A stretch of 63,534 nt of DNA from Rhodobacter sp. GTDB lineage: Bacteria > Pseudomonadota > Alphaproteobacteria > Rhodobacterales > Rhodobacteraceae. The position numbers and the translations under genes are program-made. Below the pieces are notes generated by a model. The model was not told where the DNA came from, did no database searches, and was given only the letters and a program-made list of their open reading frames with translations. The stretch covers positions 1-63,534 of the forward strand of contig JADCEN010000020.1 of assembly GCA_020250175.1 (NCBI GenBank). The letters run 5' to 3'. Within the stretch, counting starts at the first letter, position 1. Each line of letters begins with the position of its first letter. This document shows, in pieces, positions 1 to 48,365 of the stretch.

Positions 1-621
1 CAGGTCCGGGAACAGCAGAGGCCAGCGCCCGACCCGGCGGGCGAGAAGCGCCCGCCCGGGGCGGGGCGGGCGCTGGCCGGGGGCTTTGGCCCCCGGCTGG
101 CAGGAGGCGACGTTGCGGCGTGGCAAAGGCGATGGCCTTTGCCATTGAAGCGGCGAAACTGCTTCCGCCACTGCGGGCGGGAACAGGAAACGCACTGCGT
201 TTCCCCCGCCCGTGCGGGACGGTGCCTTGTAGACCGGCAGGTCCGGGAACAGCAGAGGCCAGCGCCCGACCCGGCGGGCGAGAAGCGCCCGCCGTGGGCG
301 GGGCGGGCGCTGGCCGGGGGCTTTGGCCCCCGGCTGGCGGGGTGTCATCGAAGCGCTGTGGCAAAGGCGATGGCCTTTGCCATGGCGGCGGGGGGGCAGG
401 TGGAAATGCATGGCACCATCTTCCACCCCCTCTCCGGGCGAGTACACGGAAACGCACCGCGTTTCCTCCGCCCCTGCGGGACGCCCCAGACATGACCATC
501 GCAACCCGCACACCAAAGGCCTGCGCCCGGCCCAAGGGCGGGGCGGGTACCAGCCGGGGGCTTTGGCCCCCCAAGCCTCGCGCGGCAGGCGCAGCGCAGG
601 GCCGGGGTGATGGCCCCGGCC
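1..621 (+). repeat. GC-rich tandem repeat array 1 (units of ~237 bp, truncated by the window edge)
   Basis: Two units start at 1 and 238 with the same opening (CAGGTCCGGGAACAGCAGAG), so the period is 237 bp, and a decayed third segment runs to about 621. Each unit holds nested inverted repeats: GCCAGCGCCCG pairing with CGGGCGCTGGC, a GCCGGGGGC/GCCCCCGGC hairpin, a GGAAACGC/GCGTTTCC hairpin, and a 9-bp-stem hairpin with a GATG loop at 122-143, 360-381 and 600-621. The stem sequence differs between copies but pairing is kept. The same family recurs at 11.5-12.36 kb in the same orientation. Frames are open in both directions but give low-complexity Arg/Gly/Pro/Ala peptides, so I read this as non-coding. 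The 622-822 stretch before the LysR gene shows nothing recognisable. Confidence 0.85.
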
Positions 622-822
622 AGACCGCGTGGGGCAGCCGCAGGCGGACGCCTGCCCAGCGTTGCGGTCAGCATCCCCTGCGGCCAGCACATATCCACCA
701 CCCTGAACAGATGACGGATCGGTACCGCTGCCAGCGACCGGTGCGAAGCCCCGGCCATGTTTCCGTTGCAACGCTGCGATGTCGTCCCTAAGTGCAAAAG
801 GCGAAGGGGTCAGGGTGCCGGG

Positions 823-10427: not shown

Positions 10428-11390
10428 TCAGGCGGGCTTGCGCCGGATCACCTGCCACAGGGGCAGGATCACGAACCGGGACAGGGGCAGGATCAAAAGC
10501 CCAAGGATCAGGCCGATGATGCCATCCAGCACGGCCTTCACCGCCCAGGTCACCAGGCCTGCGGCCTGCGGCACGGCATGGGCGGCCATTTCGGCGATAT
10601 GCCCGATTTGATGTTCGGGCCAGGCAAAGCCGATCTGCGCCAGCCCGTGGATCACGATGGACCCGCCGACCCAAATCATCGCCGCCGTGCCCACCGCAGA
10701 CAGGACCGCCATGAAACCGGGCATGCCGCGCACGACCCCGCGACCCAGGGCGCGGGTCAGGCCAAGGCGGCCACGCCGACTCAGGTACAGCCCCACATCG
10801 TCGGCCTTCACGATCAGCGCAACCCCGCCATAGACCAGCACGGTGATCGCGGTGCCGACAACGGCCAGGGCCGCCGCCTGAAACCAGATGTCCCGCCCCG
10901 GCAGGGCGGCCAGCGCGATGGTCATGATTTCAGCCGACAGGATGAAGTCGGTCTTCACCGCGCCTGCGACCTTTTCCTGTTCCAGATGCAGGGCTGATCT
11001 TGCCTCCTCGTCCAGCGGTTCATCCGCATGGGCGGGATGGACGACCAGGTGATACACCTTCTCGGCCCCTTCGAAACACAGATAGGCCCCGCCCAGCATC
11101 AGCAAAGGGGCAATGACCTGCGGTGCAAAGGCCGACAGCAGCAGGGCTGCCGGCAAAAGGATCAGCATCTTGTTGCGGATTGACCCCAGCGCGATGCGCC
11201 CGACGATGGGCAACTCGCGGTCGGCGGCAAAACCGTGAACATATTTCGGCGTGACGGCGGCATCGTCGATAACGGCCCCGGCGGCCTTCAGCCCGGCCTT
11301 GGCCGATTGTCCGATGACATCATCCAGCGAGGCCGCCGCAACCTTGGCAATCGCCGCCACATCGTCGAGAAGTGCAAGCAGTCCGCTCAT
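10428..11390 (-). CDS. DUF808 (YedI-like) inner-membrane protein
   Basis: 320 aa. The N-terminus MSGLLALLDDVAAIAKVAAAS, followed by KAAGAVIDDAAVTPKYV, is characteristic of DUF808 proteins. Several hydrophobic segments follow (ILLPAALLLSAFAPQVIAPL; LVYGGVALIV; GTAAMIWVGGSIVIHGLAQI; a C-terminal LILGLLILPL), so it is an integral membrane protein. Function is unknown. I start at the ATG at 11390; the upstream frame continues into repeat array 2 only as low-complexity sequence. Together with the array it separates tkt from gap. Confidence 0.9.
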   Translation of the reverse strand: MSGLLALLDDVAAIAKVAAASLDDVIGQSAKAGLKAAGAVIDDAAVTPKYVHGFAADRELPIVGRIALGSIRNKMLILLPAALLLSAFAPQVIAPLLMLGGAYLCFEGAEKVYHLVVHPAHADEPLDEEARSALHLEQEKVAGAVKTDFILSAEIMTIALAALPGRDIWFQAAALAVVGTAITVLVYGGVALIVKADDVGLYLSRRGRLGLTRALGRGVVRGMPGFMAVLSAVGTAAMIWVGGSIVIHGLAQIGFAWPEHQIGHIAEMAAHAVPQAAGLVTWAVKAVLDGIIGLILGLLILPLSRFVILPLWQVIRRKPA

Positions 11391-11489
11391 CGCATATCCT
11401 TTGCTGACGGGGCACTGACGGGGTGCTGAAAGAAGTCCGGTCGCCTGCCGGGTGGAGGTTCTTCCATATCCTGCCGCAAAAGGGCTGCC

Positions 11490-12360
11490 AATCCGGGCGG
11501 ACAGGGAAACGCACCGCATTTCCCCCGCCCGCGCGCGACGGTGCCCTGCAGACCGGCAGGTCCGGGAACAGCGCAGGCCAGCGCCCGACCCGGCGGGGGC
11601 GAAGCGCCCGCCGGGGGCGGGGCGGGCACCGGGCGGGGTTTGGCCCCCGGCTGGCGGCAGGCGACGTTGCGGCGTGGCAAAGGCGACGGCCCCTGCCATT
11701 GAAGCGGTGATACTGCTTTCGTCCCTCCGGGCGGGAACAGGAAACGCACCGCGTTTCCCCGCCCGCGCGGGACGGTGCCCTGTAGACCGGCAGGTCCGGG
11801 AACAGCAGAAGGCCAGCGCCCGACCCGGCGGGCGAGAAGCGCCCGCCGTGGGCGGGGCGGGCGCTGGCCGGGGGCTTTGGCCCCCGGCTGGGCAAGGGGC
11901 AGCGTGGCGCTGTGGCAGGGGCGATGGCCCCTGCCATTGAAGCGTTGGAAGTGCAATCGTCCCTCCGGGCGGGATGAGGAAACGCACTGCGTTTCCCCCG
12001 CCCGCGCGGGACGGTGCCCCGCAGACCGGCAGGTCCGGGAACAACGCAGGCCAGCGCCCGACCCGGCGGGCGAGAAGCGCCCGCCGTGGGCGGGGCGGGC
12101 GCTGGCCGGGGGCTTTGGCCCCCGGCTGGCCTGATGCCAGCGTGGCACTGTGGCAGGGGCGATGGCCCCTGCCATGGCAGCGGTTAGCGTGCTTTCCCCA
12201 CTCCGTGCGGGAAAAGGATACGCACCGCGTTTCCCCCGCCCGTGCGCTACGGTGCCCCGCAGACCGGCAGGTCCGGGAACAACGCAGGCCAGCGCCCGAC
12301 CCGGCGGGCCAAGGGGCAGCGGGGCGCTGTGGCAGGGGCGATGGCCCCTGCCAGACCGCG
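11490..12360 (+). repeat. GC-rich tandem repeat array 2 (four units of 234-239 bp)
   Basis: Units begin at 11557, 11791, 12030 and 12268, each with CAGGTCCGGGAACA, in the same orientation as the array at the window start. The GATG-loop hairpin occurs at 11676-11697 (loop GACG), 11914-11935, 12152-12173 and 12331-12352. The last unit lacks about 60 bp that would hold the first two hairpins. Both arrays end in GCCAGACCGCG followed by a G-rich tail, suggesting a defined border. Stems read GGCAGGGGC/GCCCCTGCC here against GGCAAAGGC/GCCTTTGCC in array 1; the 11676 copy is mixed (AAA facing CCC). The rest of the gap to gap (12361-12689) shows no gene, only a GGCAGGCCTGCC palindrome. Confidence 0.88.
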
Positions 12361-12689
12361 CGGGGTGCGTGCGGAAGGGTTTCCTGCTTTTCAGCCAGCA
12401 GTCCATGCAGGCTTCACTTTCTTGAACACCGTGGCAGGGGATCGCAGGCAGGCGCGCCGACGGGCGGCAGGCCTGCCGTAGGGGGCGAAGCGCCTTTGCG
12501 CTGACGGGGCGCGCGCGGGCCGGGCCACGGGGCACCAAAAAAGACAGGGCGGGGCGTGGAAACTTCCGCGCGGGGGCGTTATGGTCCGCCCTGTCCACAA
12601 GTATTCAACCCGCGTCCGTGTTACCGGCGCAATCTTACCCATGCCCATGGTTGCCCCTCGGGGCGGCGCGGGCCAGCAAGGAGAACCAG

Positions 12690-13691
12690 ATGACGGTCAA
12701 GGTGGCAATCAACGGCTTTGGCCGGATCGGGCGGAACGTGCTGCGCGCCATCATCGAATCGGGGCGGACCGATATCGAAGTGGTTGCGATCAATGATCTT
12801 GGCCCGGTCGAGACCAACGCACATCTCCTGCGCTTCGATTCGGTCCATGGCCGCTTTCCCGCAACGGTGACGACCACTGCCACGACCATCGACGTGGGCC
12901 GCGGGCCGATCGAGGTGTCGGCAATCCGCAATCCGGCCGACCTGCCCTGGGCGCATGTCGACATCGTGCTGGAATGCACCGGCATCTTCACCGACAAGGA
13001 CAAAGCAAAGATACACCTTGAAAACGGGGCAAGCCGCGTCCTGGTGTCTGCCCCGGCGGCAGGGGCGGACAAGACCATCGTCTACGGCGTGAACGACCAT
13101 ACGCTGACAAAAGATGATCTGATCGTTTCGAACGCGTCCTGCACCACCAACTGCCTGGCGCCGGTGGCACAGGTGCTCAACACTGCCATCGGCATCACGC
13201 GCGGATTCATGACCACAATCCACAGCTACACGGGCGACCAGCCCACGCTGGACACGATGCACAAGGACCTGTACCGCGCCCGCGCCGCCGCACTCAGCAT
13301 GATCCCGACATCGACGGGGGCCGCCAAGGCGGTGGGGCTGGTCCTGCCGGAGTTGAAGGGCAAGCTGGACGGGGTCGCGATCCGCGTGCCGACACCCAAC
13401 GTGTCTGTGGTGGACCTGGTGTTTGAGGCCGGTCGCGCCACCACGGTGGAAGAGGTGAACGCCGCCATCCGCACGGCCGCAGACGGCCGGCTGAAGGGAA
13501 TTCTGGGCTATACCGACCAGCCGAATGTCTCGTCCGACTTCAACCATGACCCGCATTCCTCGGTCTTTCACATGGACCAGACCAAGGTCATGGAAGGCAC
13601 GATGGTGCGCATCCTGTCCTGGTATGACAACGAATGGGGCTTTTCCAACCGCATGGCGGATACCGCCGTGGCGATGGGCAAGCTGATTTGA
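12690..13691 (+). CDS. gap: Glyceraldehyde-3-phosphate dehydrogenase
   Basis: A 333-aa phosphorylating GAPDH. The Rossmann start is [20 protein letters not shown], the catalytic cysteine is in [13 protein letters not shown] (about residue 152), and the C-terminal [16 protein letters not shown] is canonical. It interconverts glyceraldehyde-3-phosphate and 1,3-bisphosphoglycerate. The ATG at 12690 has AAGGAG 7 nt upstream. In relatives gap is commonly close to tkt; here they are split by the DUF808 gene and the repeat array. A 9-bp hairpin lies about 120 nt after the stop. Confidence 0.97.
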
Positions 13692-46328: not shown

Positions 46329-46405
46329 TGGCGCGGTGGACGGGGCTCGAACCCGCGACCCCCGGCGTGACAGGCCGGTACTCTAACCGACTGAGCTACC
46401 ACCGC
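46329..46405 (-). tRNA. tRNA-Asp (GTC), copy 1
   Basis: The minus strand folds as a full cloverleaf: acceptor GCGGTGG/CCACCGC, D arm AGCTCAGTCGG, anticodon arm CCGGC-CTGTCAC-GCCGG with anticodon GTC, T arm GCGGGTTCGAGCCCCGT, and an encoded CCA at the 3' end (46329-46331). It differs from copy 2 at one D-loop base. Confidence 0.97.
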
Positions 46406-46578: not shown

Positions 46579-46655
46579 TGGCGCGGTGGACGGGGCTCGA
46601 ACCCGCGACCCCCGGCGTGACAGGCCGGTACTCTAACCAACTGAGCTACCACCGC
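46579..46655 (-). tRNA. tRNA-Asp (GTC), copy 2
   Basis: Same cloverleaf and anticodon GTC with encoded CCA, 250 bp from copy 1. The similarity extends about 50 bp into the 5' flank (GCGTG-CAGGGCGGA, then GGCGTCAAGC-GGAAACG), so the pair arose by duplication of the gene with its promoter region. Confidence 0.97.
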
Positions 46656-46766: not shown

Positions 46767-48365
46767 TTGGCGAACAGCGCGGCGGAAAAGGCCTTTGAGG
46801 CGGCGGTAAAGGAAATCCGGCGGGTGAAACGGGCCAGGGCAACCACCCTTGACCTGAGCGATGTGCACTACCGCGCGCTGGACCGGATCCCGCAGAACAT
46901 CGCCACCCTCACCGCACTGCAAGTGCTCCGGCTCGACCAGACCGCCGTCAGCGACCTTGCCCCCCTCGCCACCCTCACCGCGCTGGGTTGGCTCACCCTC
47001 GACCAGACCGCCGTCAGCAACCTTGTCCCCCTCGCCGCCCTCACCGAGCTGCAAACGCTCACCCTCAACCAGACCGCTGTCCGCGACCTTGCTCCCCTCG
47101 CCGCCCTCACCGCGCTGCGAACGCTAACCCTCAGCCGGACAGCCGTCAGCCATCTCGCCCCCCTCGCCGCCCTCACCAAGCTGCAATGGCTCTGGCTCAA
47201 CCGAACCGCCGTCAGCGACCTTGCCCCCCTCGCCGGACTGGCCGACCTGAGGCAACTTGCGCTGGTCGGCTGCCAGGTGGCCGACCTGCGCCCGATCCGG
47301 GGTCTTGCCAAACTCGGCACCAACGATCCACCTGGCCTGCGCTTCGACGACACCCCCGCCACCAGGGCTGACGGCACCCTCGCCCGACTGGCCGGGATCA
47401 AGATGCACAAAGATCGCGCCCGCGAAACCCTTGCCTACCTCAACACCCTGCCGCCCTGGCCGGAACCCTATACCCCGAGCGCGAGACCGGATGGAGCACC
47501 TCCCCAGCCCATCGGGCAGGCGGAGCCTGAGGTTCCAGCCCCGCAACCGGCACCTCTGCAGGTGGTCGAGGTCGATGGCGAGCTTCGCCCGGCCCTGCCG
47601 GGCGATGGGCTTGGCGACCAGGCCCGCCTCCTCGCCCGGCAGGCCTGGGCCGCCTTGCGCGACTATCTCGCCGATCTGACGCGATTGCGGCCCCGGCTCG
47701 ACAATCAGATGCCGACCTTGTCCCGCGCGCTGGACCGCTTCGACTCGGCGCTCGGGGCCGACTACGCGGCGCTGAACGCCATCGCGCTTGGGCTTCACGG
47801 TAGCCGGATCACGCGCCTTGCCGCTGCGGCCAGCGACAGTCTGGGCGATGCCGATGCGGCCGAGATTGCGGCATTTGCGGCCGCCGTCGCCCTGTTTCTG
47901 GAGCGCTTTCCCGAATGGCGGGACTACCGCCGGATCGAAATCCCCGAGGTTCCCTCGCCCGCCCGTCTTGCCGGGGCCCTGCCCCGGATCGATGAAATCA
48001 TCGGCGACCTTTTCGACCGCGACGCGATTGCCGCAGAAATCCCCGAACAATTGCAGATGCTGGAACAATCTGCGTGGGAAGCCCCCGAGGATGCACTTGC
48101 GGCGCGCGGGCTGTTCGCGTCGTTCGGCAATGTCCTCTCGGCCTTGGCTCACGTCGCCCTGCGTGCCGTCAAAGCGGTGGGACGTGGGGCTTTGAAGCAG
48201 GTCGGCGATCTTGTTGAGGAGACCCGGAAACTGGCGCTGAAAGGTGTGGCCGCTGCGGCAGCCGACATCTTCCTCAACAAGGCAGCGGTCCTCACTTCTC
48301 TGGCGGCAAGTTTTCCAGAATGGTTCGGCTGGATCACGCCGTTCCTGCGCATGCTCGGGCTGTAA
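46767..48365 (+). CDS. Leucine-rich-repeat protein with uncharacterised C-terminal domain
   Basis: 532 aa, TTG start at 46767 with AGGAG 8 nt upstream. No signal peptide, so probably cytosolic. After a short N-terminal cap (TTLDLSDVHYRALDRIPQNI) come six consecutive 22-residue LRRs (residues 48-179) of the form LTALQVLRLDQTAVSDLAPL, the internalin-like class. Then GTLARLAGIKMHKDRARETL, a Pro-rich linker (about 235-270) and a helical C-terminal domain of about 250 residues with AALRDYLADLTRLRPRLDNQ, a LFLERFPEWRDYRR segment and a hydrophobic end (FPEWFGWITPFLRMLGL). I recall similar LRR proteins in Rhodobacteraceae but no assigned role. It is bounded by tRNA-Asp and an oxyR-like remnant. Confidence 0.85.
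   Translation: MANSAAEKAFEAAVKEIRRVKRARATTLDLSDVHYRALDRIPQNIATLTALQVLRLDQTAVSDLAPLATLTALGWLTLDQTAVSNLVPLAALTELQTLTLNQTAVRDLAPLAALTALRTLTLSRTAVSHLAPLAALTKLQWLWLNRTAVSDLAPLAGLADLRQLALVGCQVADLRPIRGLAKLGTNDPPGLRFDDTPATRADGTLARLAGIKMHKDRARETLAYLNTLPPWPEPYTPSARPDGAPPQPIGQAEPEVPAPQPAPLQVVEVDGELRPALPGDGLGDQARLLARQAWAALRDYLADLTRLRPRLDNQMPTLSRALDRFDSALGADYAALNAIALGLHGSRITRLAAAASDSLGDADAAEIAAFAAAVALFLERFPEWRDYRRIEIPEVPSPARLAGALPRIDEIIGDLFDRDAIAAEIPEQLQMLEQSAWEAPEDALAARGLFASFGNVLSALAHVALRAVKAVGRGALKQVGDLVEETRKLALKGVAAAAADIFLNKAAVLTSLAASFPEWFGWITPFLRMLGL
46908..47303 (+). repeat. Six 66-bp tandem repeats inside the LRR gene
   Basis: The LRR region is six in-frame units of exactly 66 bp. The DNA is close to identical across units (ACCGCCGTCAG-AACCTTG and CTCGCCGCCCTCACC recur), so unit number could change by slippage or recombination without breaking the frame. 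Confidence 0.85.

What the first reader, a model, noticed from the sequence alone, without database searches (positions are those of the whole stretch)
1..621. Tandem ~237-bp repeat whose hairpin stems largely co-vary (array 1)
The GATG-loop hairpin at 122-143 and 360-381 has stem GGCAAAGGC/GCCTTTGCC, while at 600-621 it is GGCCGGGGT/GCCCCGGCC. Three stem bases change on both sides and the T-G pair keeps the fold; the loop stays GATG. Together with array 2 this gives seven copies with at least three paired stem versions. Paired changes that preserve a stem are what selection on an RNA or DNA structure produces; open frames through the array are a GC by-product.
Basis: partly seen in the sequence, partly recalled or inferred. 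Interest (0 to 1): 0.78.

Follow-up and report, generated by a model that had tools for sequence, protein, structure and literature searches.

The report
Tandem arrays of REP-like hairpin repeats
The repeats are a local pile-up of a four-hairpin, non-coding DNA repeat whose core hairpin is scattered between genes in many genera of the bacterial family Rhodobacteraceae; it keeps its hairpins while its letters change, and it looks like a mobile palindromic repeat rather than a gene or a regulator of one gene.

Summary
The GATG-loop hairpins are at the stated places; window 1-623 and 11485-12355 hold head-to-tail ~238-bp units of four hairpins (H1-H4). Loci fetched from this genome hold 42 clusters, none inside a gene call; 12 share a flank with an array in a congener. 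Three of six congeners are array-rich, three are not. Other Rhodobacter-like genomes carry the four-hairpin element mostly as single copies with different but still paired stems. The core H2 is in 77 of 150 sampled family genera. Covariation is strong across genera; within the window genus it reduces to a few inherited H4 versions. All four H2 arms can change together (10 of 10 against 0 of 91). Orientation to host transcription is neutral; divergent gaps are avoided. Family-wide G.T far exceeds A.C (156:16) in either host orientation, but the window genus shows the reverse (111:179). Replication polarity is suggestive at best: seen in one chromosome and one sample, not confirmed in a second sample, absent in two genomes. 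RAYT/IS200 transposase is missing from 13 of 15 carriers; no Rfam match. Best reading: a REP-like palindromic element, probably spread through a single-strand hairpin, amplified in tandem in one lineage. No expression or mobility data.

The parts
1..623 (+). Array 1: about 2.5 units, cut on the left by the contig end; ahead of a LysR-type regulator gene (gene-1716)
18..78 (+). H2 of unit 1, core double hairpin
   Evidence: R1 hit G000:C13:18-78
77..96 (+). H3 of unit 1, CCGGGGGC TTTG GCCCCCGG, overlapping the 3' end of H2
122..143 (+). H4 of unit 1, GGCAAAGGC GATG GCCTTTGCC
175..211 (+). H1 of unit 1, GGGCGGG ... GGAAACGC / GCGTTTCC CCCGCCC
255..315 (+). H2 of unit 2
   Evidence: R1 hit
314..333 (+). 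H3 of unit 2
360..381 (+). H4 of unit 2
448..466 (+). H1 inner stem of unit 2
554..573 (+). H3 of the last, partial unit
600..621 (+). H4 of the last unit, GGCCGGGGT GATG GCCCCGGCC
11485..12355 (+). Array 2: about 3.6 units between divergent DUF808 (10428-11390, -) and GAPDH (12690-13691, +) genes
11505..11523 (+). H1 inner stem
11676..11697 (+). H4, hybrid copy with one arm of each version (mispaired)
11740..11758 (+). H1 inner stem
11809..11869 (+). H2
   Evidence: R1 hit
11868..11887 (+). H3
11914..11935 (+). H4, GGCAGGGGC GATG GCCCCTGCC
11978..11996 (+). H1 inner stem
12047..12107 (+). H2
   Evidence: R1 hit
12106..12125 (+). H3
12152..12173 (+). H4
12216..12234 (+). H1 inner stem
12331..12352 (+). 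H4 closing the array

Best explanation
Each ~238-bp unit is one copy of a dispersed, non-coding, REP-like palindromic element of Rhodobacteraceae, in the order H1 - spacer - H2 - H3 - spacer - H4. The core H2 (arms A A' A A', able to nest into one long hairpin) with H3 overlapping its 3' end is the family-wide part; H1 and H4 accompany it in the Rhodobacter-like relatives. Shown: it lies between genes, avoids divergent gaps, sits in convergent gaps and inside operons in either orientation, keeps its hairpins through paired changes, and was amplified head to tail in four species of one genus. Inferred: copies are made through a single-stranded hairpin (DNA at replication, or an RNA), so that pairing is policed on the element's own strand; copying between arms rewrites several arms at once; arrays grow by unequal recombination or slippage between units. 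In the host the hairpins are probably tolerated as intercistronic or 3'-end stabilisers (by analogy with REPs, recalled); the arrays in this window are probably passive expansions without a gene-specific job.
For: 42 clusters in loci fetched from the own genome, no gene call inside any. Of 150 candidates scored per genome, H2 matches number 64 in G000, 150, 131 and 149 in G001, G004 and G005, but 2, 2 and 0 in congeners G002, G003 and G006. H1-H2-H3-H4 elements, mostly single, in Rhodobacter sp. SGA-6-6, Pseudorhodobacter PARRP1 and others with other paired stems. H2 in 77 of 150 family genera. Covariation: H2 18 of 25 pairs with changes on both sides, 0 of 500 shuffles on every measure; H4 29 cells and H1 11 cells with both sides changed, 0 of 500 each; H3 a perfect stem of 7 bp or more in 67 of 95 against 7 of 950 control places, with 47 distinct 5' arms. 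Divergent gaps avoided, odds ratio 0.16. Orientation neutral: 29 sense, 34 antisense of 95. G.T 156 vs A.C 16, also in antisense operon insertions, 45:3. Quadruple arm change 10 of 10 vs 0 of 91. Polarity hints: G082 10 of 11; SGA-6-6 first sample, contig coherence 39 of 45, p 0.00045, and opposite to the G-rich strand 38 of 45.
Against: In the window genus G.T does not exceed A.C (111 vs 179), array strand does not follow local GC skew (17 of 42) and is not coherent within contigs (16 of 24, p 0.94). In SGA-6-6 a second sample of 40 copies gives coherence 32 of 40, p 0.089, and 32 of them tested against new skew samples are concordant in 16 (third codon positions) or 25 (all bases). PARRP1 shows none (29 of 44, p 0.64). 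Other complete genomes: G015 4 of 7; eight more 11 of 17. No mobilising enzyme was identified. Elements sit in the same cysS-cimA gap in 14 genomes, which could mean old conserved function rather than mobility. Three pair columns supply 109 of the 156 G.T cells; without them it is 47:16, and outside tight gaps between co-directional genes only 4:5 and 2:2. No clean empty site with duplicated target was found.
Confidence: 0.66

Rival explanations
1. A structured RNA (sRNA or cis element such as a terminator, attenuator or mRNA stabiliser) is the selected product, and the arrays are repeated RNA genes or 3'-UTR modules.
For: Strong covariation; family-wide G.T over A.C on one strand; recurring positions after stop codons inside operons such as cysS-cimA, sucD-sucA, soxB-soxD, pheS-pheT.
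Against: Orientation to host transcription is neutral (29:34; 23:23) and the pairing asymmetry is the same in antisense insertions (45:3). Inverted copies occupy the same cysS-cimA gap (4 of 14; 5 of 13). No Rfam match. Reverse asymmetry in the window genus.
Confidence: 0.2
2. Paired changes are a by-product of template switching and recombination between palindrome arms and between units; no selection on structure is needed. This overlaps with the best explanation, which uses the same process.
For: All four H2 arms change together; hybrid H4 at 11676; stem versions concerted within each genome; array length differs at a shared site (L049 vs L204).
Against: Strong one-strand G.T bias family-wide; H3 keeps pairing with 47 distinct arms over many genera.
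Confidence: 0.35
3. The open frames encode low-complexity repeat peptides.
For: Long frames run through both arrays on both strands.
Against: No Pfam family in 6 of 6 frames tested, no codon-based gene call in 42 of 42 arrays; units differ in length (about 212 to 248 bases among whole-unit hits), which breaks frame.
Confidence: 0.02

Closest known systems
REP / BIME elements with RAYT (TnpA-REP), as in E. coli and Pseudomonas (recalled; abstracts seen)
   Same: High-copy extragenic palindromes, 3'-end and intercistronic placement, avoidance of promoter gaps, species-specific stem versions.
   Different: No GTAG foot (GTAG or CTAC in 2 of 95), no PF01797 gene in 13 of 15 carriers, much larger (core 67 nt plus H3, unit ~238 bp), head-to-tail arrays rather than alternating orientation.
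CGTC-tagged REPs of alphaproteobacteria (PMC3733652; passages seen)
   Same: Alphaproteobacterial palindromic repeats reported to lack a dedicated transposase.
   Different: CGTC or GACG in the foot window in only 5 of 95; the paper's text holds no occurrence of Rhodobacter, Ruegeria, Paracoccus or Roseobacter; A A' A A' core and composite unit.
Br-REP1/2 of Bradyrhizobium (PMC5082802; passages seen)
   Same: REP elements in 3'-UTRs of an alphaproteobacterium.
   Different: Other order; no composite H1-H4 unit or tandem arrays in the passages seen; sequences not compared here.
attC sites and IS200/IS605 ends (recalled)
   Same: Strand-specific folding of single-stranded DNA; two nested inverted pairs in attC; replication-strand preference of IS200/IS605.
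   Different: No IS200 enzyme in most carriers; integron integrase was not searched for; attC core motifs not seen by eye (recalled motif).

Membership tests
REP (RAYT-associated) | Palindromic and extragenic | tested here: met
   42 of 42 own clusters outside gene calls; elsewhere 3 of 83 overlap a gene call and 2 of 95 lie inside one; hairpins
REP (RAYT-associated) | High copy number in the genome | tested here: met
   119 model hits in loci of G000; 64 to 150 H2 matches in the four array genomes, 150 candidates scored each. Most other family genomes have few
REP (RAYT-associated) | GTAG foot | tested here: not met
   2 of 95, either strand
REP (RAYT-associated) | RAYT (PF01797) in the genome | tested here: not met
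   0 in own genome; 2 of 15 carriers have a match
BIME | REPs in alternating orientation forming a mosaic | tested here: not met
   Whole units lie head to tail in one orientation, though each unit joins several palindromes
CGTC REP | CGTC tag at one end | tested here: not met
   5 of 95, either strand
Known structured RNA (Rfam 15) | Match at gathering score | tested here: not met
   Only three tRNAs in the window; three hits, all below gathering score, in 10 loci
Cis-regulatory RNA | Fixed orientation to the regulated gene | tested here: not met
   29 sense vs 34 antisense of 95 loci
ssDNA hairpin mobile element (IS200/IS605-like behaviour) | Replication-strand polarity | tested here: inconclusive
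   For: G082 10 of 11, SGA-6-6 first sample. Against: SGA-6-6 second sample, PARRP1, G000, G015
ssDNA hairpin mobile element (IS200/IS605-like behaviour) | Active mobilisation | not testable with these tools
   Needs experiment or close strains

The most novel reading that the evidence does not exclude
A family-wide bacterial repeat that spreads without its own transposase by replication-coupled template switching through a strand-specific double hairpin (A A' A A'), so that arms are copied onto one another and stems evolve by quadruple replacement, with tandem arrays as runaway products in one clade.
Probability: 0.2. Interest if true: 0.78.

Novelty: new variant of a known kind. Interest (0 to 1): 0.53.

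Why it matters
It would add a widespread class of REP-like elements to a major group of aquatic bacteria. Its stem covariation can mislead RNA finders, because the paired changes follow the element rather than host transcripts. The four-arm covariation makes the open question of how transposase-less REPs spread and evolve directly testable. The arrays also help to explain fragmented assemblies: 14 of 42 arrays in this genome lie within about 300 bases of a contig end.

Tried and rejected
Coding repeat: rejected. Known Rfam RNA: rejected. RAYT-driven REP: PF01797 absent from the own genome and from 13 of 15 carriers. Phage origin: no blastn match at E 1e-3 in 50,697 phage records. Plasmid-borne: 4 plasmid records with partial matches, Phaeobacter and Leisingera. 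Sense-RNA selection in the window genus: the G.T vs A.C test went the other way.

Rows dropped. SGA-6-6 pair counts: the H1 outer stem was mis-located in my script, so that row is dropped; without it the count is G.T 13, A.C 3 over 43 elements, and part of H2 was fixed by the search pattern. Family-wide pair counts: of 112 R1 matches, 101 were kept (100 distinct); dropped were 7 second-strand readings of palindromes, 3 weak matches (L097, L095, L160 5057) and the second window copy. One search used all 112.

Replication polarity. G082: of 13 hits below E 1e-4 two near the terminus (1592106, 1646813) are dropped, leaving 10 of 11 (p 0.012). G015: of 9, two near the terminus (1126122, 1268829) are dropped; 3185050 is placed by gidB; 4 of 7. 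Eight genomes with gidB as origin and the terminus assumed half-way: 11 of 17; weak matches and G124 2369937 (at the assumed terminus) left out. G188 and G105 left out, gidB on another contig. All together 25 of 35, p 0.017. GC skew was sampled for G082, G015 and SGA-6-6 only. The second SGA-6-6 sample did not confirm the first clearly, so I lowered the best explanation from 0.68 to 0.66, the novel case from 0.25 to 0.20 and interest from 0.55 to 0.53.

Literature: searches listed no description of this element in Rhodobacteraceae; only open-licence PMC papers are held, so this is weak evidence that it is undescribed.

Full report
What is there. At 1-623 and 11485-12355 it holds head-to-tail units of about 238 bp. 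Each unit, read on the + strand, has four hairpins: H1 (GGGCGGG..GGAAACGC/GCGTTTCC CCCGCCC), H2 (GGCCAGCGCCCG.CCC GGCGGGCG AGAAG CGCCCGCC ... CGGGCGCTGGCC), H3 (CCGGGGGC TTTG GCCCCCGG) and H4 (TGGCAGGGGC GATG GCCCCTGCCA). The finding's hairpins are H4 and are exactly as described. Array 1 runs off the contig end; array 2 lies between a DUF808 gene and a GAPDH gene that diverge. Of six array frames tested none matches Pfam up to E 0.1.

In this genome and its congeners. A DNA search gave 78 matches on the own genome, with 40 of 166 candidates scored. Fetched loci hold 119 model hits in 42 clusters, none overlapping a call of my own codon-based gene caller; 14 of 42 lie within about 300 bases of a contig end. 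With the H2 model, 150 candidates scored per genome, G001, G004 and G005 have 150, 131 and 149 matches, G000 64, G002 2, G003 2, G006 0. By equal contig lengths G001, G004 and G005 are the MAGs titled Rhodobacter sp. M53BS1, M090S1 and M051S1 (inference). Twelve of the 42 own arrays share a flank, within 250 bases of the array edge, with an array in one of 57 congener loci compared. The DUF808-GAPDH gap carries array sequence beside both genes in G001 and G005 (on separate contigs) and beside DUF808 in G004; in G002 and G003 DUF808 is followed by a GAPDH gene after about 193 and 195 bp, though that is a second GAPDH paralogue. At one shared site with both flanks aligned the array is shorter in G004 (L049 vs L204). 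So many arrays are inherited by descent and change length.

In other genera. In Rhodobacter sp. SGA-6-6 the same H1-H2-H3-H4 order occurs mostly as dispersed single copies. Stems differ between genomes but stay paired: H1 GGCGAGGC/GCCTCGCC and H4 TGGCGAAGGC/GCCTTCGCCA in SGA-6-6, and further versions elsewhere. The H2 model (R1) matches 77 of 150 Rhodobacteraceae genomes, each of a different genus and G000 among them; in a class-wide sample of 144 genomes 4 match, 3 of them of the family.

Covariation. H4: 19 versions that I picked by hand, so they show variety, not frequency; 95.8% of cells pair against 81.9 shuffled, 29 cells have both sides changed against 9.2 (0 of 500 shuffles each), but the number of pairs so changed (4) and of pair types (9) does not exceed the shuffles (260 and 372 of 500). 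H1: 14 picked rows, 99.1% paired, 11 cells, 0 of 500; pairs changed 5 of 500, types 184 of 500. H2: 110 distinct rows, 18 of 25 pairs with both sides changed, 0 of 500 on all five measures; a smaller hand-made set agrees. H3: 84 of 95 family copies have a perfect stem at the 3' edge of H2, 67 with 7 bp or more against 7 of 950 control positions, with 47 distinct 5' arms. Sequences are related, so cells are not events. H2 has arms A A' A A': the pairs at columns 10/82 and 35/55 switch together in 10 of 10 copies (ten genomes) against 0 of 91; these ten may go back to few events. A single nested hairpin does not require that; copying between arms, or selection on the side-by-side fold (15 to 23 kcal/mol weaker in six examples), would.

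One strand. From a paired stem, G.T and A.C mispairs are equally likely if neither strand matters. Family-wide H2 has 156 G.T and 16 A.C (100 distinct copies); three pair columns supply 109 of the G.T, and without them it is 47:16. The seed set, found by sequence alone, gives 29:5. The excess holds whether the element lies sense (31:0) or antisense (45:3) in tight gaps between co-directional genes; with the three columns left out these are 11:0 and 15:3, but 4:5 and 2:2 in the wider gaps. So it looks like a property of the element strand. Against this, the window genus has 111 G.T and 179 A.C (206 copies): its array copies show no sense-strand constraint.

Context. Elements avoid divergent gaps: 9 of 103 classified elements against 94 of 250 remaining gaps of 100 bases or more, the latter taken as all such gaps minus the element gaps. 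Between co-directional genes orientation is even: 23:23 in the first sets and 29:34 in 95 family loci, which partly overlap the first. The same sites recur across genera: the cysS-cimA gap in 14 of 95 loci, 14 genomes of different genera, 10 with the operon and 4 inverted; also sucD-sucA, soxB-soxD and pheS-pheT (names by NCBIfam, soxD below its cut-off). Of 30 cimA loci taken without regard to the element, 13 have an H2 match upstream of cimA (8 with, 5 against cimA; one stretched by an insert); 6 have gaps of 0 to 8 bases before cimA, and in 6 my search found no cysS.

Replication. The evidence is mixed. In G082 10 of 11 copies lie with the sense strand opposite to the leading strand. In SGA-6-6 a first sample of 45 copies is coherent within contigs (39 of 45, p 0.00045) and lies opposite to the G-rich strand in 38 of 45; a second sample of the 40 best matches (overlapping the first) gives coherence 32 of 40, p 0.089, and concordance with new skew samples of 16 of 32 by third codon positions or 25 of 32 by all bases. 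G015 gives 4 of 7, eight further genomes 11 of 17. PARRP1 (29 of 44, p 0.64) and the own arrays (16 of 24, p 0.94; local skew 17 of 42) show nothing.

Mechanism. Shown: extragenic repeat, paired evolution, linked arms, family-wide strand asymmetry, orientation neutrality, tandem expansion in one clade. Inferred: spread through a single-strand hairpin (DNA at the fork, or an RNA), homogenisation by template switching, array growth by unequal recombination (hybrid H4 at 11676), host tolerance as a mild mRNA-end stabiliser. No mobilising enzyme was found; I searched for PF01797 only, which is missing from 13 of 15 carriers.

What is known. REP and BIME elements are the nearest kind; the GTAG-foot and RAYT tests fail, and so does the CGTC foot of the alphaproteobacterial group (PMC3733652, PMC12306157, PMC5082802 and PMC2873474 seen as passages). 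Seven library searches listed no description in this family. I therefore file it as REP-like, not as a REP.

Noticed in passing
window 46767-48365: A 532-aa open frame whose start holds leucine-rich-repeat-like units (LxxLTxLxxLxLxxTAVSDLAPLA) coded by 66-bp tandem repeats at 46900-47235.
   Followed up: partly
window 46329-46405 and 46579-46655: Two nearly identical tRNA-Asp genes 250 bp apart.
   Followed up: no
L353, L355, L359 (upstream of cimA): A different recurring hairpin, around GGGGGGC..T.TGCCCCCC, followed by a GTATTT...AAGAT-like tail, in the same gap of other genera.
   Followed up: no
L085, L101, L110: The 5' half of H2 followed by another hairpin whose stem differs between copies but stays paired, in place of the H2 3' half.
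   Followed up: no
L364, upstream of cimA: An inverted H2 element stretched to 132 bases by other DNA within it.
   Followed up: no
window 10428-13691 and the matching region of G002 and G003: G002 and G003 have two GAPDH genes after DUF808 where the window genome has one beyond the array.
   Followed up: partly
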